A DNA stretch of 64,000 bases from Bernardetia sp. (GTDB lineage: Bacteria > Bacteroidota > Bacteroidia > Cytophagales > Bernardetiaceae): positions 1 through 64,000 of the forward strand of contig NZ_JAHDIG010000001.1 of assembly GCF_020630935.1 (NCBI RefSeq), in the 5' to 3' direction. The notes beneath the pieces are model-generated. The model worked only from the letters and a program-made list of their open reading frames with translations, ran no database searches and had not been told where the DNA came from. Positions 25,887-33,192 of this stretch are shown here, piece by piece (the stretch's first letter is position 1; each line of letters opens with the position of its first letter). Position numbers and translations under genes: made by a program.

Positions 25887-27407
25887 ATGAGATTCAATAG
25901 CACAACAAAAAGAACCCACATCACAACCAACTACGAAGGAGCAAAAGCATACAGCATTTCTCCAGCGTTGGAACTATATTCTGCTGTGGTTACTTCTTCA
26001 CTTAGCAATACATTTTACGAAGCTACAGATGATAGAATAAGCCGTTTGAGAAAACTCATTGCTCAAAACGACCCTCTTTTTGTGGCAAAACTAGCTGTTT
26101 ATGCTCGTGAGAAAATGTATTTGCGTTCTATCCCTTTGGTTTTGGCAGTAGAACTTGCTAAAGTTCATAAGGGAAATGACTTGGTAAGCCGTTTGGTAAG
26201 CCGAATTGTGAAGCGTGCTGATGAGATAACCGAACTCTTGGCATATTACCAAGCTGCAAACAAGAGAAGCGATGTCAAAAAATTAAATCGTCTTTCTAAG
26301 CAGTTGCAGAAAGGTTTGGCAATCAGTTTCAATAGGTTTGACGAATACCAATTTGCTAAATACAACAGAGATACAGAAATTAGATTGCGTGATGCACTGT
26401 TTTTGGTTCACCCAAAAGCAAAAGACGAAAGTCAGCAAATGCTTTTTAATAAAATTGTAGAAGATACTTTGCAAGTGCCTTATACATGGGAAGTAGAACT
26501 CTCAAGATTAGGGCAATCTGAATTCGCCAATGAAATAGACAAGCAAAATGCTCTCAGAGAGAAGTGGCAAGAACTTATCGATAGTGGTAAACTAGGCTAC
26601 ATGGCTCTTTTGAGAAACCTTAGAAATATGCTTCAATCAAATGTGAGTAAAGAACATATCAAAAAAGTAGCTCAAAGGCTTTCTAACCAAAAAGAAGTAG
26701 AAAGGTCGAAACAACTTCCTTTCCGTTTCTTGTCAGCATTTAGAGAGTTAGAAAAACAACCTTTTGTGAACGTTCAAATTCTACTTTCTGCACTAGAAGA
26801 AGCTGTAAAAATTTCTATTAGAAACTTGAAAGGTTTTGATGAGAACACTTCTGTCTTGATAGCTTGTGACGTTTCAGGTTCTATGCAATTTCCAATCTCG
26901 CCAAGAAGCTCTGTTTTGGGCTACGACATTGGGCTTGTTTTGGGAATGCTTTTGCAACACCGTTCAGAGTCTGTAATTAGTGGTCTTTTTGGAGATACTT
27001 GGAAAGTTATTAATCTACCAAAAGGAAATATTCTTTCTAATGTGCAAAATTTGCGTAAGCGTGAAGGAGAAGTGGGTTACTCTACAAATGGTTACTTAGT
27101 CATCAAAGATATTTTGAAGCGTAAGCAAAAAATAGACAAAGTAATGATTTTTACAGACTGCCAACTTTGGAATAGCAATTACAGTAAAGAAAGCATTTCA
27201 GACTACTGGAATCAGTACAAGAAAGAAGTCGCACCAAATGCTAAACTCTACTTGTTTGATTTGCAAGGATACGGCAAAATGCCACTTCAACTTAAAACAA
27301 ACGATGTTAGCTTAGTGGCTGGTTGGTCGGATAAGGTTTTTGAAGTAATGGAAGCCATCGAAAATGGTCAAGATACTTTGAGCCAAATCCAAGAACTAGA
27401 ATTTTAG
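25887..27407 (+). CDS. rsr: TROVE-domain Ro60/Rsr-like RNA-binding protein
   Basis: 506 residues from the ATG at 25887; a TTG at 25842 would add 15. The N-terminal two-thirds is the helical HEAT-like TROVE ring: YEGAKAYSISPALELYSAVVTSSL, KLAVYAREKMYLRSIPLVLAVELAKVH and LGYMALLRNLRNML are family signatures. The C-terminal third is a von Willebrand A domain with a MIDAS motif CDVSGSM (near residue 328) and a later FTDCQLW. Ro60 proteins bind misfolded or fragmented RNA in the central hole and Y RNA on the outer surface. In Deinococcus and Salmonella they work with exoribonucleases such as PNPase. Ninety bases downstream the ten-unit Y-RNA-like array begins on the same strand, which strongly supports the assignment. 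Confidence 0.95.
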   Translation: MRFNSTTKRTHITTNYEGAKAYSISPALELYSAVVTSSLSNTFYEATDDRISRLRKLIAQNDPLFVAKLAVYAREKMYLRSIPLVLAVELAKVHKGNDLVSRLVSRIVKRADEITELLAYYQAANKRSDVKKLNRLSKQLQKGLAISFNRFDEYQFAKYNRDTEIRLRDALFLVHPKAKDESQQMLFNKIVEDTLQVPYTWEVELSRLGQSEFANEIDKQNALREKWQELIDSGKLGYMALLRNLRNMLQSNVSKEHIKKVAQRLSNQKEVERSKQLPFRFLSAFRELEKQPFVNVQILLSALEEAVKISIRNLKGFDENTSVLIACDVSGSMQFPISPRSSVLGYDIGLVLGMLLQHRSESVISGLFGDTWKVINLPKGNILSNVQNLRKREGEVGYSTNGYLVIKDILKRKQKIDKVMIFTDCQLWNSNYSKESISDYWNQYKKEVAPNAKLYLFDLQGYGKMPLQLKTNDVSLVAGWSDKVFEVMEAIENGQDTLSQIQELEF

Positions 27408-27497
27408 AATAAATACAACTTTGTCAGTCGTTTGCTAAGGCAAACACTGGCAATAGTTGATAAAACATAACTCACTCTTCAGAGTGAGAAAAAATAT

Positions 27498-27640
27498 AAT
27501 GAGTGCCGTAAAGAAAAGTTACTTCGGTTAGAACGCTTGCCTTATTTCGCAAGAGGACGTGGGTTCAATTCCTACCTTTCCAAAACTGTCATGTTTGGAA
27601 TGTAGTTCAGTTTCATACTTTTTTTGTCTATTGCCTCATT
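27498..27640 (+). ncRNA. Y-RNA-like unit 1: permuted tRNA mimic opened in the D loop
   Basis: Closing stem AATGAG/CTCATT. Upper helix AAGAAAAGT/ACTTTTTTT. The head reads in the order: 3' half of D arm (GAAC, 27531), anticodon-like hairpin CTTGC/GCAAG (27536-27553, 8-nt loop), T arm 27559-27575 with TTCAATT loop, acceptor-like stem TTTCCAAA/TTTGGAA closed by a short loop, then 5' half of the D arm (TAGTTC, pairing with GAAC). It is therefore a complete tRNA shape whose ends are fused and whose D loop is opened onto the Ro-binding stem. Preceded by hairpin CTCACTC/GAGTGAG at 27471-27488. Confidence 0.85.
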
Positions 27641-27681
27641 TTCAAAAAATGCAGCTCATTCTTTAGAGTGAGAGTAAAAAT

Positions 27682-27818
27682 AATGAGTGCCGTAGAAGAG
27701 AGTTACTTCTTGGTTGGAACAACTGTTTAGATATACTCAAATAGTCGGGTTCGAGTCCCTTCACCTTAGAATTTTTCTAAGATGTAGTTCATCTACTTTC
27801 TTTGCCTGTTGCCTCATT
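27682..27818 (+). ncRNA. Y-RNA-like unit 2: permuted tRNA mimic opened in the D loop
   Basis: Closing stem AATGAG/CTCATT; 5' box GTGCCGTA and 3' box GTTGCC share the C-G version of the covarying pair with unit 1. The upper helix is AAGAGAGT/ACTTTCTT. The head has D-arm half GGTTGGAAC, an anticodon-position hairpin ACTGTTT/AAATAGT, a T arm around 27746-27760 (GGG-TTCGAGT-CCC), an acceptor stem CTTAGAA/TTCTAAG with a 3-nt loop, and the second D-arm half TAGTTC. A CTCATTC/GAGTGAG hairpin precedes it at 27654-27671. Confidence 0.85.
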
Positions 27819-27896
27819 TTCAAAAAATGCAGCTCATTCTTTAGATTGAGAAAATAATATTTCATTTTACCCAGTCTGGAAGACTGGTGTACAAGT

Positions 27897-28045
27897 AAAA
27901 AAGAGTGTCGTAGAAGAGAGTTACTTCGCCTGTAACGCCAGAGGTCGTAGGTTCGAATCCTACCGTTCTACCCATTTTGTAGGATGTGGTCTAGTTGGTC
28001 TAAGACGCTGAAAAAAAGTCTCTCCTCGCCTGTAACCTCTTTTTT
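27897..28045 (+). ncRNA. Y-RNA-like unit 3: permuted tRNA mimic opened at the anticodon arm
   Basis: Closing stem AAAAAAGAG/CTCTTTTTT. The head starts with an anticodon-loop-like remnant (CTGTAACGCCAG), then T arm 27947-27963 (GTAGG-TTCGAAT-CCTAC), acceptor stem GTTCTAC/GTAGGAT whose loop begins with CCA, and a complete D arm (GTCT/AGAC, 27989-28006). The CCA after the acceptor strand looks like a relic of a tRNA 3' end. The upper helix GAAGAGAG/CTCTCCTC has one mismatch. A small extra hairpin (CCAGTCT/AGACTGG) lies just upstream at 27871-27887. Confidence 0.85.
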
Positions 28046-28062
28046 AAAAGAGAGCAAGAAAT

Positions 28063-28189
28063 AAAATGAGTGTCGTAAAAAAGAGTTCCTTCTTTATAAA
28101 TCACAAGTAGGCTCGTACACTATTTTCGTCTTAAACGAACAAAGAACGAAATAAACGTACAATCCTCTTTTTGCTTATTACCTCATTTT
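28063..28189 (+). ncRNA. Y-RNA-like unit 4: non-tRNA head
   Basis: It has the full frame of the array: closing stem AAAATGAG/CTCATTTT, box GTGTCGTA, perfect upper helix AAAAAGAG/CTCTTTTT and 3' box ATTACC. The head has no T loop, no D arm and no acceptor stem. Instead it can fold as a long hairpin through GTAC/GTAC and TTTCGT/ACGAAA around 28113-28162. What RNA it might imitate, or what it binds, I cannot tell. Confidence 0.75.
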
Positions 28190-28203
28190 TACAAAAATAT
28201 AAT

Positions 28204-28361
28204 AACAAAAAAGTGTCGTAGAATAGACTTACTTCGACTATTAATCGGCGTGTCGTGGGTTCGAATCCCACCTCCCTAGCAAAAAAAATAATCAATCTTG
28301 GGGAGTAGCTCAGTCTGGTAGAGCAGCAAACGTGGTCTTTTCGCTTGTTACCTTTTTTGTT
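28204..28361 (+). ncRNA. Y-RNA-like unit 5: permuted class I tRNA mimic
   Basis: The closing stem is extended, AACAAAAAAG/CTTTTTTGTT and up to 13 bp with flanks. The head begins with an Asn-tRNA-like anticodon-region remnant (GACTATTAATC), then T arm 28255-28271 (GTGGG-TTCGAAT-CCCAC), acceptor CTCCCTAG/CTTGGGGAG joined by an A-rich loop, and a canonical D arm GCTC...GAGC (28308-28324). The upper helix GAATAGAC/GTCTTTTC has one U-U mismatch. The 3' segment GCAAACGTGGTCTTTTCGC is shared with unit 6. Confidence 0.9.
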
Positions 28362-28417
28362 ATTGTATTATTAAAGTTTAACCGTCAACGAGCTTTAAAG
28401 CGTCGTTGAGGAAAAAT

Positions 28418-28575
28418 ATAAATGAGTGTCGTAGAAGAGACTTACTTCGATTTGGGTTCGGCAGGTCGCAGGTTCGAATCCTGCCTCTCTACCTATTTAG
28501 TATTTTAAAATGTAGAGAGTAGCTCAGTCAGGTTAGAGCAGCAAACGTGGTCTTTTCGCTTGTTACCTCATTTAT
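28418..28575 (+). ncRNA. Y-RNA-like unit 6: permuted class I tRNA mimic
   Basis: Closing stem ATAAATGAG/CTCATTTAT; upper helix GAAGAGAC/GTCTTTTC, perfect with one G-U. The T arm is at 28468-28484 (GCAGG-TTCGAAT-CCTGC). The acceptor CTCTCTAC/GTAGAGAG is 8 bp, with a 19-nt closing loop. D arm GCTC/GAGC at 28522-28539. The cleanest example of the acceptor-T-D mimic. It is preceded by a hairpin TCAACGA/TCGTTGA at 28385-28409. Confidence 0.92.
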
Positions 28576-28594
28576 TTCTATTAAAACAGAAAAT

Positions 28595-28731
28595 AAAAAA
28601 GTGTCGTAGAGAAAGGATACTTCTGTACACAGGTTCGAATCCTGTTTCTTTCTAAGCCTTAGAAAGAGTGGCAGAGTGGTTATGCAAGAGCCTTTTAATA
28701 AGGTTTGCCTTTTTCGAATATTACCTTTTTT
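28595..28731 (+). ncRNA. Y-RNA-like unit 7: class II (Ser/Leu-type) tRNA mimic
   Basis: Closing stem AAAAAAG/CTTTTTT; upper helix GAGAAAGG/CCTTTTTC is perfect with one G-U. T arm 28629-28645 (ACAGG-TTCGAAT-CCTGT). Acceptor CTTTCTAA/TTAGAAAG has a 3-nt loop. The D arm GTGGCAGAGTGGTTATGCA has the sequence typical of serine and leucine tRNAs. An added hairpin follows (GCAA/TTGC around CCTT/AAGG, 28684-28708), in the place where units 5, 6 and 8 have a single-stranded linker. Confidence 0.88.
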
Positions 28732-28749
28732 GTTTTTTTGATTGTAAAT

Positions 28750-28899
28750 AAAAGAAGTGTCGTAGAATAGGCTTACTTCGATTACGGCTCGGCAGGTTAT
28801 GGGTTCGAATCCCATTTTCTTTTTACTAAAAACAGTTTGAAGAAATAGCTCAACTGGATAGAGCAGCAAATGTAGTCTTTTCGCCTGTTACCTTCTTTT
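28750..28899 (+). ncRNA. Y-RNA-like unit 8: permuted class I tRNA mimic
   Basis: Closing stem AAAAGAAG/CTTCTTTT; upper helix GAATAGGC/GTCTTTTC keeps pairing through a G-U where units 5 and 6 have A-U. T arm 28799-28815 (ATGGG-TTCGAAT-CCCAT). Acceptor TTTCTT/AAGAAA is weak and closed by a long A-rich loop. D arm GCTC/GAGC at 28848-28864, followed by GCAAATGTAGTC, as in units 5 and 6. Confidence 0.88.
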
Positions 28900-28909
28900 T
28901 TCAAAAAGT

Positions 28910-29062
28910 AAAGAGTGTCGTAAAAAAGGGTTACTTCTTATTTCTTACGATTTCACAGGTTCGAATCCTGTCTTTTTCTAAAATTTAGAGAAAGTGGCAG
29001 AGTGGCTAAATGCGAGGACTTTCTTCGGAAAGTTTTGTTCCCTTTTTGCTTGTTACCTCTTT
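28910..29062 (+). ncRNA. Y-RNA-like unit 9: class II tRNA mimic with UUCG hairpin
   Basis: Closing stem AAAGAG/CTCTTT; upper helix AAAAAGGG/CCCTTTTT perfect. T arm 28955-28971 (ACAGG-TTCGAAT-CCTGT). Acceptor CTTTTTCT/AGAGAAAG, 8 bp. A Ser/Leu-type D arm (GTGGCAGAGTGGCTAAATGCG) is followed by an extra hairpin ACTTTC-TTCG-GAAAGT (29018-29033) with the very stable UUCG tetraloop. A CTCACT/AGTGAG hairpin separates it from unit 10. Confidence 0.9.
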
Positions 29063-29098
29063 TTCAAAATGTAGCTCACTTAGAGTGAGAAGATAAAT

Positions 29099-29355
29099 AA
29101 AAAAGAAGTGTCGTAGAGAAAAAATACTTCGTTAAGCGTCTTAAAGTAGCGATATTTTGGGTGACCGAATGTGTGAAGATGAGCCTAGCTCCGTGGCAAA
29201 AATCGGAAAATGTACGTAATGGTCTTTTCTGTAAGTCTCTTGTAGATGTCGAATTGCCAGCTCACTGTTTTTCTATTTTGTAGAAAGAAAAGAGCGACGA
29301 GTAGTTCAGAGTTTTCTGACTACAAGCATTTTCCTCGCTTGTTACCTTCTTTTTT
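29099..29355 (+). ncRNA. Y-RNA-like unit 10: large head resembling 23S rRNA domain IV-V
   Basis: 257 nt, the longest unit. The frame is intact: closing stem AAAAAAGAAG/CTTCTTTTTT, box GTGTCGTA, upper helix GAGAAAA/TTTTCCTC with one bulge, 3' box GTTACC. The head lacks tRNA signatures. It carries, in 23S order, TCTTAAAGTAGCGATATT at 29139 (15 of 18 positions as in the conserved segment near E. coli 1930-1950), TGTGAAGATG at 29172 (as near 2025-2035), CGGAAA at 29204 (as near 2055-2060), and GATGTCG...GCTCA at 29245 (as near 2497-2506). A strong hairpin GTAGT...ACTAC lies near 29301-29323. These E. coli numbers are from memory and approximate. Confidence 0.8.
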
Positions 29356-29373
29356 GTTTTTTTATGCGTTTCA

Positions 29374-29393
29374 AGATAAGGCGTGCCTTATCT
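29374..29393. repeat. Perfect inverted repeat after the array
   Basis: AGATAAGGC/GCCTTATCT with a 2-nt loop, 13 bp before the ligase stop codon. The T-rich run just upstream (29349-29363) could terminate the array. This palindrome may be a terminator-like end for the convergent ligase transcript or a REP-type element. Confidence 0.55.
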
Positions 29394-29405
29394 CTACAGA
29401 AATTA

Positions 29406-30443
29406 TTATTTTTTAGACATAAATTTCTGACAATCTGCTGTGATTCTTTCTTCAATCCATTGCTTTTGATGAGATGATAGTTCTACCAAAATCGTATCAT
29501 TGTCTTGATCAAAATCTATCAGAATATCCTTGACAAATTCTTCTCTGATTTCCTCTATTCGCTCTGAATTATCAAAATCTAGTTTTCCAATCTTTGAAAT
29601 GGCACTTTGTAGCCTGTTTTGAGTAATGTAGTTTCTTAATTCTTCTACCAAAAACTGTAATTCTTCTGTATTGGAGGAAATATTTGGAACAAACGACCAT
29701 TTTTGCGCTTCATGAAATGCCTTGTTTTCTTCAAATTCTGGATTTTTGATTTTCAAGATAGGGCGATTAGGAAATATTTCTGTATCTAATTCTTGGAGCG
29801 GCTTAATTACGATGCCTTCTATCAAATTATTTTTAAAATTTGGCAAATTTAATTGTATTGGAATAGTAGAATTAATACGAATATCAAACTCTAAAGCTTC
29901 ATTCAGCTTTCCAATAAAAAGATTTTTAGCATATAGTAGTTTGTGTGTTTCAAATAGTCGTATTGCTTTGTCATAATCCAAATAGGTTTTGATGTTTTCA
30001 GTTTCAAAGGCAATATCGAAGGCACAAAATTCAATCGTTGGGCTATAATAAATTCCTGTTTGGATAGCTTGCAGACTTTCTACTTTCTCTACTTCAGAAT
30101 GTGGATATTCTCCACCAAAAAGCTCTCCGTAGATAATATATTTTTCAGCTTCTATCGTTTGCATCAACTCTTCAAAAAAGCTAATAATTTGACTTTCTAG
30201 TTTGTTTACAACCAGTTGAAAGCCAAAAAAGTCGTCTTTCCAATCTAAATATTCCTTTCGCTTGCCATAATGAAGCCTTCCATCTTGATAGATAAAAGAA
30301 AAATTTGCACCGTGTATTTTTTCTGTTACTATCCACTCTATTTTATCTAATTCTGTGTATTGATACTGATTCAGACCTAGTTTTTTCAAACTGGTAGGTA
30401 TTTTTTCATAGCTAGAAAACGATGATGCTTCTAAATTTTTCAT
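29406..30443 (-). CDS. Rnl2-type RNA ligase
   Basis: 345 residues. Nucleotidyltransferase motif I is TEKIHGANFSF with the AMP-accepting lysine at residue 42, closely matching the KIHGTNF type of T4 Rnl2. A motif III-like segment FCAFDIAF follows, then motif IV IEGIVIKPL near residue 209 and a motif V-like LKIKNPEFEENKAFHE. A C-terminal helical domain of ~100 residues fits the Rnl2 family. Such enzymes seal 3'-OH/5'-phosphate nicks in RNA duplexes with ATP. The gene converges on the Ro60/Y-RNA array. RNA-repair genes are known neighbours of bacterial Ro60 loci, so a joint role in RNA repair or in processing of the array RNAs is likely but unproven. Confidence 0.92.
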   Translation of the reverse strand: MKNLEASSFSSYEKIPTSLKKLGLNQYQYTELDKIEWIVTEKIHGANFSFIYQDGRLHYGKRKEYLDWKDDFFGFQLVVNKLESQIISFFEELMQTIEAEKYIIYGELFGGEYPHSEVEKVESLQAIQTGIYYSPTIEFCAFDIAFETENIKTYLDYDKAIRLFETHKLLYAKNLFIGKLNEALEFDIRINSTIPIQLNLPNFKNNLIEGIVIKPLQELDTEIFPNRPILKIKNPEFEENKAFHEAQKWSFVPNISSNTEELQFLVEELRNYITQNRLQSAISKIGKLDFDNSERIEEIREEFVKDILIDFDQDNDTILVELSSHQKQWIEERITADCQKFMSKK

Positions 30444-32715: not shown

Positions 32716-33192
32716 ATGACTATTCCTTTTTCTAACCCAATACAATTTGAATGTCCTTCACTTGACGAACTGCCAATGGTTGCAAAAAAAGTTATTGCGG
32801 TGGCAAATACCCTCAATAGACGTATTTGGATTTTGGAAGGCGATTTGGGAGCAGGAAAGACTACTTTTACCAAAGCTGTTTGTAAGGAACTAGGAGTAGA
32901 AACAACTGTCAGCAGTCCGACATTTGCCCTCATCAATGAATATGAAGGCAAGTATGACAATCAAGAAGAAAAACTAATTTATCATTGCGATTTTTATAGA
33001 ATAGATAACCCTTCCGAAGTTTTGGAGTTAGGATTAGATGAATATTTTGAAAAAGTAGAAAATCATGGAAATTATTGTTTTATAGAGTGGGCTTCCAAAA
33101 TAGAGCCTTTTCTACCAGAGGAATATTTACAAATCGATATAGAAATCAACCCAACTACCCATTCACGTACTTTAACCTTGAGTAGCTTATGA
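32716..33192 (+). CDS. tsaE: tRNA threonylcarbamoyladenosine biosynthesis ATPase TsaE
   Basis: 158 residues. Walker A motif [19 protein letters not shown] near residue 45, followed by [14 protein letters not shown] and HCDFYRID, the standard TsaE/YjeE pattern, and [13 protein letters not shown]. With TsaB and TsaD it makes the t6A modification at position 37 of ANN-decoding tRNAs. Its stop overlaps the start of ald (ATGA), so the two are translationally coupled. Confidence 0.93.

What the first reader, a model, noticed from the sequence alone, without database searches (positions are those of the whole stretch)
25887..30443. Ro60 protein, ten-member array of RNA-mimicking Y RNAs, and an Rnl2-type RNA ligase in one locus
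Sequence shows a TROVE/vWA protein, then ten units with a shared frame (GTGYCGTA ... TTRCC, closing stem, upper helix) and diverse heads, then an RNA ligase with a KIHGAN motif. Established: bacterial Ro60 (Rsr) binds YrlA RNAs that contain a tRNA-like module, and RNA-repair genes often neighbour such loci. Inference: here the Y RNA has been expanded into a library of decoys or adaptors that mimic class I tRNAs, class II tRNAs and rRNA, letting the Ro60 complex recognise partners of different structured RNAs, with the ligase sealing or rejoining RNAs. I am not aware of a described array of this size and diversity.
Basis: partly seen in the sequence, partly recalled or inferred. Interest (0 to 1): 0.96.

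Follow-up and report, generated by a model that had tools for sequence, protein, structure and literature searches.

The report
Ro60 locus with tRNA-mimicking RNA array
Next to a bacterial Ro60 gene lie ten small RNA genes that share one stem but carry different heads, most imitating tRNAs and one related to RNAs that copy a piece of ribosomal RNA; related bacteria have the same layout, often among RNA-repair genes, so it may help cells cope with damage to their protein-making machinery.

Summary
A TROVE/vWA (Ro60) gene, ten tandem units with one frame, and an Rnl2-type ligase are where stated. The units are Y RNAs: closing stem, internal loop GTGYCGTA/TTRCC, upper helix, exchangeable head. 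Covariation in 22 picked units supports the frame plus a circularly permuted tRNA (93% of cells paired; 0 of 500 shuffles as good). Units lie beside Ro60 in 90 of 92 distinct loci; full-length matches fall in exactly the 16 Ro60-bearing genomes of 59, five of which gave nothing to the model. Most heads mimic tRNAs; 22 of 312 carry an exact anticodon loop (shuffles: mean 0.4, maximum 3), and some are bare anticodon hairpins. Unit 10 belongs to a class whose best member copies 33 of 33 bases of 23S helices 69-70; a model built without it finds it, and it stands beside the ligase in the three same-genus genomes with Ro60. Fifty of 92 loci hold RNA-repair genes; ARAGORN calls tRNA genes near units in 18 of 90. 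I infer a Ro60-held set of tRNA/rRNA mimics used as decoys or adaptors in RNA repair. Binding, transcription and decoy action are untested.

The parts
25887..27407 (+). Ro60 (Rsr) protein gene, TROVE + vWA, 506 aa
   Evidence: Pfam PF05731 E 2.3e-33; PDB 9l5y/9kop TROVE-domain chains E 1.8e-34
27495..27643 (+). Y RNA unit 1: permuted tRNA opened inside the D loop, whole anticodon arm kept; closest own tRNA Thr-GGT
   Evidence: Alignment score 64.9 against 34.1 best of 20 shuffles; model R1 72 bits; relatives L061 7547, L060 6904
27679..27821 (+). Y RNA unit 2: tRNA-like head, D-loop opened, weak likeness to any one tRNA
   Evidence: 42.8 against 32.5 best of 20 shuffles; R1 57.6 bits; relative L061 6708
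27897..28045 (+). Y RNA unit 3: permuted tRNA opened between D arm and anticodon arm; loop read as CUGUAAC; 3' box TAACC
   Evidence: R1 102 bits; 56.0 against 37.1 best of 20 shuffles; relatives L061 7711, L060 7075
28062..28190 (+). Y RNA unit 4: frame present, head of no recognised model
   Evidence: R1 52.6 bits; no tRNA likeness, 24.5 against 30.1 in shuffles; fold z -3.1
28205..28360 (+). Y RNA unit 5: permuted class I tRNA, loop CUAUUAA
   Evidence: R1 138 bits (sequence is in the model); Rfam YrlA 43.5 bits, below gathering 69; fold of the single sequence weak, z -0.3
28418..28575 (+). Y RNA unit 6: permuted class I tRNA, loop UUUGGGU
   Evidence: R1 130.9 bits, sequence not in the model; YrlA 33.6 bits
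28593..28733 (+). Y RNA unit 7: class II-like (Ser-type D arm) permuted tRNA
   Evidence: R1 62.6 bits; best own tRNAs Cys 47.9, Asn 46.0, Ser-TGA 43.0 against 35.5 in shuffles; relatives L061 8133, L060 7636; fold z -2.85
28749..28900 (+). Y RNA unit 8: permuted class I tRNA; loop UUACGGC identical to own tRNA-Arg(ACG)
   Evidence: R1 131.3 bits (sequence is in the model); loop match; YrlA 38.1 bits
28907..29065 (+). Y RNA unit 9: class II-like permuted tRNA with a UUCG-capped hairpin after the D arm
   Evidence: R1 79.4 bits; best own tRNA Ser-TGA 46.7 against 32.3 in shuffles; fold; relatives L061 8133, L060 7636
29100..29354 (+). Y RNA unit 10: R class, the class with 23S rRNA helix 69-70-like heads
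   Evidence: Model R2 built without it: 63.6 bits, E 3.3e-13; alignment A1
29406..30443 (-). Rnl2-type RNA ligase, convergent with unit 10
   Evidence: PF09414 and PF18043; trypanosome editing ligase 1xdn E 1.1e-20 and T4 Rnl2 2hvq E 2.6e-13
27471..27488 (+). recurrent spacer hairpin CTCACTCTTCAGAGTGAG, variants at 27655, 27833, 29075

Best explanation
The locus encodes a family of bacterial Y RNAs. Shown by sequence and covariation: each has the same stem and internal loop, and a different head. Most heads are circularly permuted tRNAs in which the acceptor stem is closed by a loop, which should leave them unable to be charged, and in many of them the frame letters UUCG can form one strand of a rebuilt anticodon arm; unit 10 is of a class that copies 23S helices 69-70. 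Inferred: the common stem docks in Ro60, and the head presents a copy of a vulnerable or enzyme-recognised part of the translation RNAs. The Ro60 particle thereby binds the proteins that act on those parts, either drawing anticodon- and rRNA-cleaving nucleases away (decoy) or bringing repair, processing and decay enzymes together (adaptor). The ligase, and in relatives other ligases, end-healing enzymes and spare tRNA genes, repair or replace the damaged RNA. Confidence in the array of tRNA/rRNA-mimicking Y RNAs itself is about 0.9; the figure below is for the function as well.
For: Units go with this Ro60: 90 of 92 distinct loci; full-length R1 matches of 54 bits or more in 16 of 16 Ro60+ and 0 of 43 Ro60- relatives (11 of the 16 gave a sequence to the model, the other five, G001, G004, G038, G054 and G058, reach 96 to 132 bits). 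Structure: 93.0% of 825 cells paired against 70.7% shuffled, 29 of 38 pairs changed on both sides, 0 of 500 shuffles as high. Anticodon arms: at the fixed place 31 heads have a 3-bp stem with a 7-nt loop, against at most 8 for loops of 3-6 or 8-12 nt; 22 of 312 heads with an exact loop of own-genus tRNAs, shuffles mean 0.375, maximum 3 of 200. 23S mimic: 33 of 33 identity in L134; R2 hits unit 10 but not the real 23S. Setting: RNA-repair genes in 50 of 92 loci; ARAGORN tRNA calls near units in 18 of 90 loci, all 72 on the Ro60 strand, Lys-UUU commonest, Rfam agreeing in 9 of 10 such loci scanned. Rnl2 in 8 of 16 Ro60+ against 1 of 43 Ro60- genomes, p 4.5e-5, relatedness not corrected for; R class beside Rnl2, convergent, in G000, G001 and G004.
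Against: No expression or binding data. In Salmonella no fragments of YrlA were seen when tRNAs were cut (PMC7790460, passages), which speaks against a sacrificial substrate there but not against an inhibitor. The named anticodon helix pairs in only 69% of cells, with one of four pairs changed on both sides (six of 22 rows are shifted by one base), and with looser placing the 7-nt preference shrinks to 115 heads against 58-97 for other lengths. Anticodons of matching units drift between close species (unit 3: CUGUAAC, CUAUAAC, UUAUAAC). Only unit 8 of ten has an exact own anticodon loop. Unit 4 mimics nothing I could name, and unit 10 is not among the nine heads with a significant 23S match. 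The window has no tRNA genes. Rnl2 is in only 5 of 92 loci, and its link to the R class was not significant in the 29 named genomes alone (p 0.16). Single-sequence folds of units 1-9 are only modestly stable (z -0.3 to -3.1).
Confidence: 0.5

Rival explanations
1. The heads are docking sites for ordinary tRNA/rRNA modification or maturation enzymes (such as TruB and DusA, known to modify YrlA), and damage plays no part.
For: YrlA is a DusA and TruB substrate (PMC8394870, passages). Anticodon loops and H69 are both heavily modified RNA parts (recalled). T stem and D stem pair in 100% of cells.
Against: Does not explain the RNA-repair genes in 50 of 92 loci or tRNA genes among the units, nor the need for many different heads.
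Confidence: 0.2
2. Decay machine: all Y RNAs only gate Ro60 and tether an exonuclease such as PNPase; head variety widens which structured RNAs are fed to it.
For: Deinococcus Rsr-Y RNA-PNPase particle degrades structured RNA (PMC8394870 and PMC7790460, passages).
Against: Heads look like substrates of translation enzymes rather than PNPase ligands; ligases and end-healing enzymes as neighbours fit repair better.
Confidence: 0.2
3. Permuted tRNA genes that mature into working tRNAs.
For: Permuted order with D, T and acceptor stems.
Against: No CCA at the expected place of the linker (5 of 150); acceptor closed by a loop of median 8 nt; frame keeps a helix between D arm and anticodon arm; non-tRNA heads share the frame.
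Confidence: 0.03
4. Relics of tandem tRNA duplications or repeats, without function.
For: Tandem tRNA genes do give partial matches to the permuted model (in one checked case G000:C25 14431-14548, between two Val genes), so such pairs are a plausible origin of the heads.
Against: Strong covariation, 344 against 4 strand bias, strict link with Ro60.
Confidence: 0.03

Closest known systems
Bacterial Y RNA YrlA (Rfam RF02553)
   Same: Beside Ro60; stem plus circularly permuted tRNA module with T arm, closed acceptor-like stem and D arm (permutation described in PMC11472068, passages).
   Different: Best window units score 43.5, 38.1 and 33.6 bits, below the gathering score 69, and nothing in thirteen relatives' loci reaches it. 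Here there are ten units; many tRNA-type heads rebuild an anticodon arm, for which the Rfam consensus shows no hairpin, and relatives carry 23S-like, pseudoknotted or bare anticodon hairpin heads.
rsr-yrlBA-rtcBA RNA repair operon (Salmonella)
   Same: Ro60, Y RNAs and an RNA ligase together (PMC7790460, passages).
   Different: Ligase is Rnl2-type, convergent, after the array; no RtcB relative found in the 14 kb around it. RtcR/sigma54 control not tested.
Phage tRNA arrays and phage RNA-repair genes
   Same: Spare, diverged tRNA isoacceptors, Lys-UUU prominent, with RNA ligases (PMC10264068, abstract and passages); some jumbo phages have TROVE proteins besides Rnl1/Rnl2 ligases (PMC7824862, passages).
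   Different: Here the tRNA genes stand among Ro60-linked Y RNAs in bacterial genomes; none in the window itself.
T4 RNA ligase 2
   Same: Adenylyltransferase and T4_Rnl2_C domains.
   Different: Bacterial, beside a Y RNA; activity untested.

Membership tests
Bacterial Ro60 (Rsr) | TROVE domain followed by vWA domain | tested here: met
   TROVE E 2.3e-33; vWA_Ro60 E 4.1e-6, 0.4 bit under the curated cut-off
Bacterial Ro60 (Rsr) | binds Y RNA | not testable with these tools
   no binding data for this protein; a review passage reports Y RNAs co-precipitated with Ro60 of Bacteroides thetaiotaomicron (PMC11277228)
Bacterial Y RNA (YrlA) | encoded next to Ro60 | tested here: met
   90 of 92 distinct loci
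Bacterial Y RNA (YrlA) | long closing stem with conserved internal loop | tested here: met
   helices 1 and 2 with 15 of 18 pairs changed on both sides
Bacterial Y RNA (YrlA) | permuted tRNA module (T arm, acceptor-like stem, D arm) | tested here: met
   seven of ten window units in the T-arm class; unit 2 weakly, units 4 and 10 not
Bacterial Y RNA (YrlA) | Rfam RF02553 gathering score 69 | tested here: not met
   best 43.5 bits; 0 in the window and 0 in thirteen relatives' loci
Bacterial Y RNA (YrlA) | transcribed and Ro60-bound | not testable with these tools
   no RNA data
Rnl2-type RNA ligase | nucleotidyltransferase domain and Rnl2 C-terminal domain | tested here: met
Rnl2-type RNA ligase | seals RNA nicks | not testable with these tools
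   no activity data
tRNA gene | cloverleaf in gene order, with anticodon and acceptor end | tested here: not met
   ARAGORN 0; one Rfam tRNA match of 30.1 bits spans two units; no CCA enrichment in linkers
23S rRNA fragment or pseudogene (unit 10 class) | continuous similarity to 23S | tested here: not met
   only the helix 69-70 stretch matches, in nine heads not including unit 10; the rest is its own conserved fold; R2 does not hit 23S

The most novel reading that the evidence does not exclude
Ro60 islands of Bacteroidota are translation-damage cassettes: a Ro60-held library of Y RNAs copies the targets of ribotoxins (tRNA bodies, anticodon loops, 23S helices 69-70) and blocks or senses the toxins, while ligases and end-healing enzymes mend what was cut and spare tRNA genes replace it; the 23S-like Y RNA and the Rnl2 ligase form a dedicated pair for nicked 23S rRNA.
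Probability: 0.25. Interest if true: 0.95.

Novelty: new variant of a known kind. Interest (0 to 1): 0.84.

Why it matters
What bacterial Y RNAs do with their tRNA-like head is an open question, studied in few species. Here nature offers hundreds of heads on one scaffold, some cut down to a bare anticodon hairpin and others turned into a ribosomal RNA piece. That makes the question directly testable: what a head copies should predict what it binds. The link with ligases, end-healing enzymes and spare tRNAs would tie Ro60, a human autoantigen family, to a defence of the translation machinery.

Tried and rejected
Permuted-tRNA genes, tandem-tRNA relics and 23S pseudogenes were considered and disfavoured. 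CCA in the linkers as a sign of recent origin from tandem tRNAs or ligated ends: not enriched, 5 of 150. Own-genome 23S: no match in the draft assembly, so the 23S region of the same-genus genome G001 was used. The R-class head outside the helix 69-70 stretch matched nothing convincing in Rfam (one member scanned). An R-class to Rnl2 link held in the 16 Ro60+ relatives (7,1,1,7; p 0.010) and in the pooled 45 (11,5,5,24; p 0.001) but not in the 29 named genomes alone (4,4,4,17; p 0.16; two further requested genomes were not held, and one of the four ligases has a stop inside). PADLOC gave nothing for Ro60 and only a weak partial AbiGi match for the ligase (20 bits). My first unit scanner with a second box had an offset error and found almost nothing; corrected. 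A first structure string for A2 was misplaced and replaced. Key papers on bacterial Y RNAs (Chen 2014, Wang 2018, Sim 2018, Sim 2020, and Burroughs 2016 on RNA repair) are not held, so I could not check how many Y RNAs per species they report; from recall, the abstract of Chen 2014 says at least one Y RNA in each species resembles tRNA, which implies that several per species is known. My statement that anticodon-arm, 23S-like or tRNA-interleaved Y RNA arrays are not described rests on ten library searches and is weak for subscription papers. Structure prediction and fold search were not used.


Full report
WHAT IS THERE. The window carries a TROVE/vWA protein (25887-27407), ten tandem RNA units (27495-29354) and, convergent with the last unit, an Rnl2-type ligase (29406-30443). 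The units share a frame: a closing stem of about 8 bp, GTGYCGTA on the 5' side facing TTRCC on the 3' side (TAACC in unit 3), an upper helix of 8 bp, then WTMCTTC(G) and a head. The Y of GTGYCGTA and the R of TTRCC form a covarying pair (C-G 12, U-A 8, U-G 2 of 22). Relatives by Ro60 include Cytophagales, Flavobacterium, Chryseobacterium, Chitinophaga, Pontibacter, Bacteroides and Dysgonomonas; two of the 80 records bear non-Bacteroidota names (Limnohabitans, Williamsia), probably mis-binned metagenome contigs.

IS IT MORE THAN CHANCE. I searched with this Ro60 in one genome per species: 447 relatives, of which the tool keeps the best 80 loci, plus 17 loci from unnamed relatives and the window. 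A frame scanner gave 344 units on the Ro60 strand, 4 on the other strand and none in shuffled sequence. Units per locus ran from 0 to 10 (2 of 98 with none; the window counts as 9 there because unit 3 was missed); after dropping six loci fetched twice, 90 of 92 have units. One of the two empty loci, L120, has an R-class unit elsewhere in its genome (G077). Of the units, 301 lie downstream, 42 upstream and 1 inside the Ro60 match. In 59 relatives searched whole, full-length matches of 54 bits or more to a model of 22 tRNA-type units fall in exactly the 16 genomes that have this Ro60. Eleven of the 16 gave a sequence to the model, so their match is partly by construction; the five that gave none (G001, G004, G038, G054, G058) reach 96 to 132 bits. 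The 43 without this Ro60 show, in a list that is cut off at its weak end, matches to model positions of about 30-116 of up to 56 bits and a few full-length ones of at most 48 bits. Where I looked these come from tandem tRNA genes read across their junction (G000:C25 14431-14548; G003, L207) or from another permuted RNA (G003, L202). On the 22-unit alignment the named structure pairs 93.0% of cells against 70.7% when shuffled, with 29 of 38 pairs changed on both sides and no shuffle as high on any measure. The alignment was picked from good tRNA-type units, so it leans towards that structure.

THE HEADS. There are 312 distinct heads. They sort, by rough pattern rules, into: tRNA-like with T arm (202), a pseudoknotted tRNA-like type with GGGGAGG...CCCC (30), 23S-like or R (14), heads of 45 nt or less (31) and others (35). 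66 of the 79 loci with two or more units hold at least two of these classes, so arrays are sets of different things rather than repeats of one. In the aligned tRNA-like heads the order is anticodon arm, T arm, acceptor 3' strand, loop, acceptor 5' strand, D arm: a whole tRNA opened between D arm and anticodon arm, with the Y stem inserted there. The frame's own UUCG can serve as the 5' strand of the anticodon arm (2 to 5 bp in the 22 units), but that helix as named pairs in only 69% of cells and only one of its four pairs changes on both sides. Known YrlA has the permuted body (PMC11472068 passages); its Rfam consensus shows no anticodon hairpin.

ANTICODON LOOPS. At the fixed place after CTTC, 31 heads have a 3-bp stem with a 7-nt loop, against at most 8 for loops of 3-6 or 8-12 nt; with looser placing it is 115 against 58-97. 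With tRNAs of the own draft genome, 14 of 110 such 7-nt loops are exact anticodon loops, against a mean of 0.12 and a maximum of 2 in 200 shuffles; with those of a same-genus genome added and looser placing, 22 of 312 heads against 0.375 and 3. By exact 7-mers near the head start, Lys-UUU (9), Asn-GUU, Pro-UGG and Asp-GUC (6 each) and Trp-CCA (4) are commonest. Some short heads are little but such a hairpin, for example UUCA-CUCCAAA-UGAA (Trp loop, L093), with Asn, Asp, Lys and Leu loops in L090, L128, L147 and L091. Against a strict reading, the anticodon drifts between matching units of close species (unit 3), and in the window only unit 8 has an exact own loop (Arg-ACG).

THE WINDOW'S TEN. 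Units 3, 5, 6 and 8 are class I tRNA mimics. Units 1 and 2 are opened in the D loop (unit 1 nearest Thr-GGT, score 64.9 against 34.1 for the best of 20 shuffles; unit 2 weak, 42.8 against 32.5). Units 7 and 9 have a Ser-like D arm (best whole tRNA Cys for unit 7, Ser for unit 9), and unit 9 a UUCG-capped hairpin after it. Unit 4 has no recognised model (24.5 against 30.1). Unit 10 is of the R class. Eight of the ten heads clearly exceed the shuffle maximum against heads of the same-genus array L061, while units 4 (33 against 29) and 5 (44 against 32) do so narrowly or modestly.

THE 23S-LIKE CLASS. Nine of 312 heads match 23S rRNA of a same-genus genome at E up to 0.01; the best, in L134, is 33 of 33 identical over CGTAACTATAACGGTCCTAAGGTAGCGAAATTC, helix 69 and the start of helix 70 (the first two letters are frame). 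Rfam's LSU model aligns it to positions 1932-1988 at low score (7.2 bits, E 3.4). The rest of the head is a separate conserved fold: 22 of 45 predicted pairs have a change on both sides in 13 sequences. Unit 10 is not among the nine: it is diverged in the helix 69 part. A model built from eight other loci (three of them Chryseobacterium) finds it at 63.6 bits, E 3.3e-13, and does not hit 23S rRNA. The class is in 8 of 59 relatives (one of them, G047, gave a sequence to the model) and 8 of 29 named genomes, seven of which I had put in because they carried it and which also gave the model's other sequences. In the window, G001 and G004 it lies convergent beside Rnl2; in G004 that pair is on a contig other than the Ro60 contig, and the ligase match is in two pieces.

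SURROUNDINGS. Clustering proteins of 92 distinct loci and checking ten representatives in Pfam shows RtcB in 31, a T4 Rnl1-like ligase in 12, RlaP in 10, polynucleotide kinase in 9, Hen1 in 8, Pnkp in 6, Rnl2 in 5, Thg1 in 4 and a WYL-type regulator in 50; any repair gene in 50, any of the four counted ligases in 46 (many contigs end early, so these are low counts). No search was made for how often such genes stand beside random genes. ARAGORN places 72 tRNA calls within the arrays or 1.5 kb of them in 18 of 90 loci, all 72 on the Ro60 strand, 12 of them Lys-UUU. At least two of these calls (L064 8077, L065 8083) are really Y units. Rfam was run on ten of the 18 loci and confirms tRNA genes, up to 71 bits, in nine; the call in L097 is not confirmed. 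In one genome most array tRNAs are far diverged from tRNAs with the same anticodon elsewhere (Lys 30, Tyr 28, Met 24, Arg 18, Gln 7, Glu -6 on a scale where identity is about 74; Ser and Pro closer, 52 and 56; one Gly copy 2.3 kb from Ro60 identical, using 27 of the 71 tRNA places of that genome found).

HOW IT MAY WORK. Reported elsewhere: bacterial Ro60 binds Y RNA; Y RNA can tether PNPase; YrlA is modified by tRNA enzymes; Salmonella's operon answers tRNA damage, and its authors raise that YrlA may inhibit the anticodon nuclease (PMC8394870 and PMC7790460, passages). A review reports Y RNAs co-precipitated with Ro60 of Bacteroides thetaiotaomicron (PMC11277228, passage), and Bacteroides sp. 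51 has two frame units beside its Ro60 (L145). My inference is that the array supplies Ro60 with a set of mimics that bind the proteins acting on tRNAs and 23S, as decoys or adaptors in RNA repair. Shown: array, frame, mimicry, co-occurrence. Not shown: transcription, Ro60 binding, partner proteins, any effect.

NOVELTY. Y RNAs with permuted tRNA modules, and Ro60 beside RNA ligases, are known. Arrays of this size, rebuilt anticodon arms, bare anticodon heads, a 23S-like class standing beside Rnl2, and tRNA genes among Y RNAs I did not find described in ten searches of the open library, of which I saw listings and passages of eight papers; the main Y RNA papers are not held. I file it as a new variant of a known kind.

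Noticed in passing
L062, L064, L065, L089, L090, L100, L134, L142, L147, L154 and others: ARAGORN calls tRNA genes near or between Y RNA units in 18 of 90 loci, all on the Ro60 strand, Lys-UUU commonest; Rfam confirms in 9 of 10 loci scanned.
   Followed up: partly
L098 11766, L091 6923, L151 12027 and 25 more heads: A pseudoknotted, apparently non-permuted tRNA-like head type (GTCT...GGGGAGGA...T arm...AGAC..CCCC); 26 of 28 have 3 or more complementary bases for the second stem, 13 of 28 four or more, shuffles mean 3 and maximum 8 for four or more.
   Followed up: partly
G000:C19 36029-36155 and 36506-36648 (L201), G003:C1 2943630-2943768 (L202): Another permuted tRNA-like RNA with a different frame (TTGGTATATATGAC ... 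GTCAT..GACG); in G000 among odd tRNA genes; G003 has no Ro60 of this family.
   Followed up: partly
G000:C25 14431-14548, L207, probably G042 and others: Tandem tRNA genes match the permuted-tRNA model across their junction (positions 30-116), a possible origin of the heads and a trap for searches.
   Followed up: partly
L203 (G008:C13), L204 (G054:C52), L205 (G039:C42): Y RNA arrays on contigs other than that of the Ro60 gene (drafts), two with an R-class unit; L203 has an ORF with HIFQDGNKRTG that looks like a Doc/Fic protein (name from recall; PADLOC PDC-S23 E 1.6e-13).
   Followed up: partly
window 27471, 27655, 27833, 29075: A recurrent perfect or near-perfect hairpin of the kind CTCAYTCTTYAGAGTGAG before units 1, 2, 3 and 10, perhaps a processing site.
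   Followed up: no
50 loci among L068-L155: A WYL-type regulator on the opposite strand, median about 0.6 kb upstream of Ro60, in 50 of 92 loci (one representative checked in Pfam); not found in the 14 kb around the window's Ro60.
   Followed up: partly
window 32716-33192: Downstream P-loop ORF that looks like TsaE, a tRNA-modification gene (name from recall, not tested).
   Followed up: no
window 5545 and 59615: Two more exact GTGYCGTA words on the + strand; model R1 finds no unit there.
   Followed up: yes
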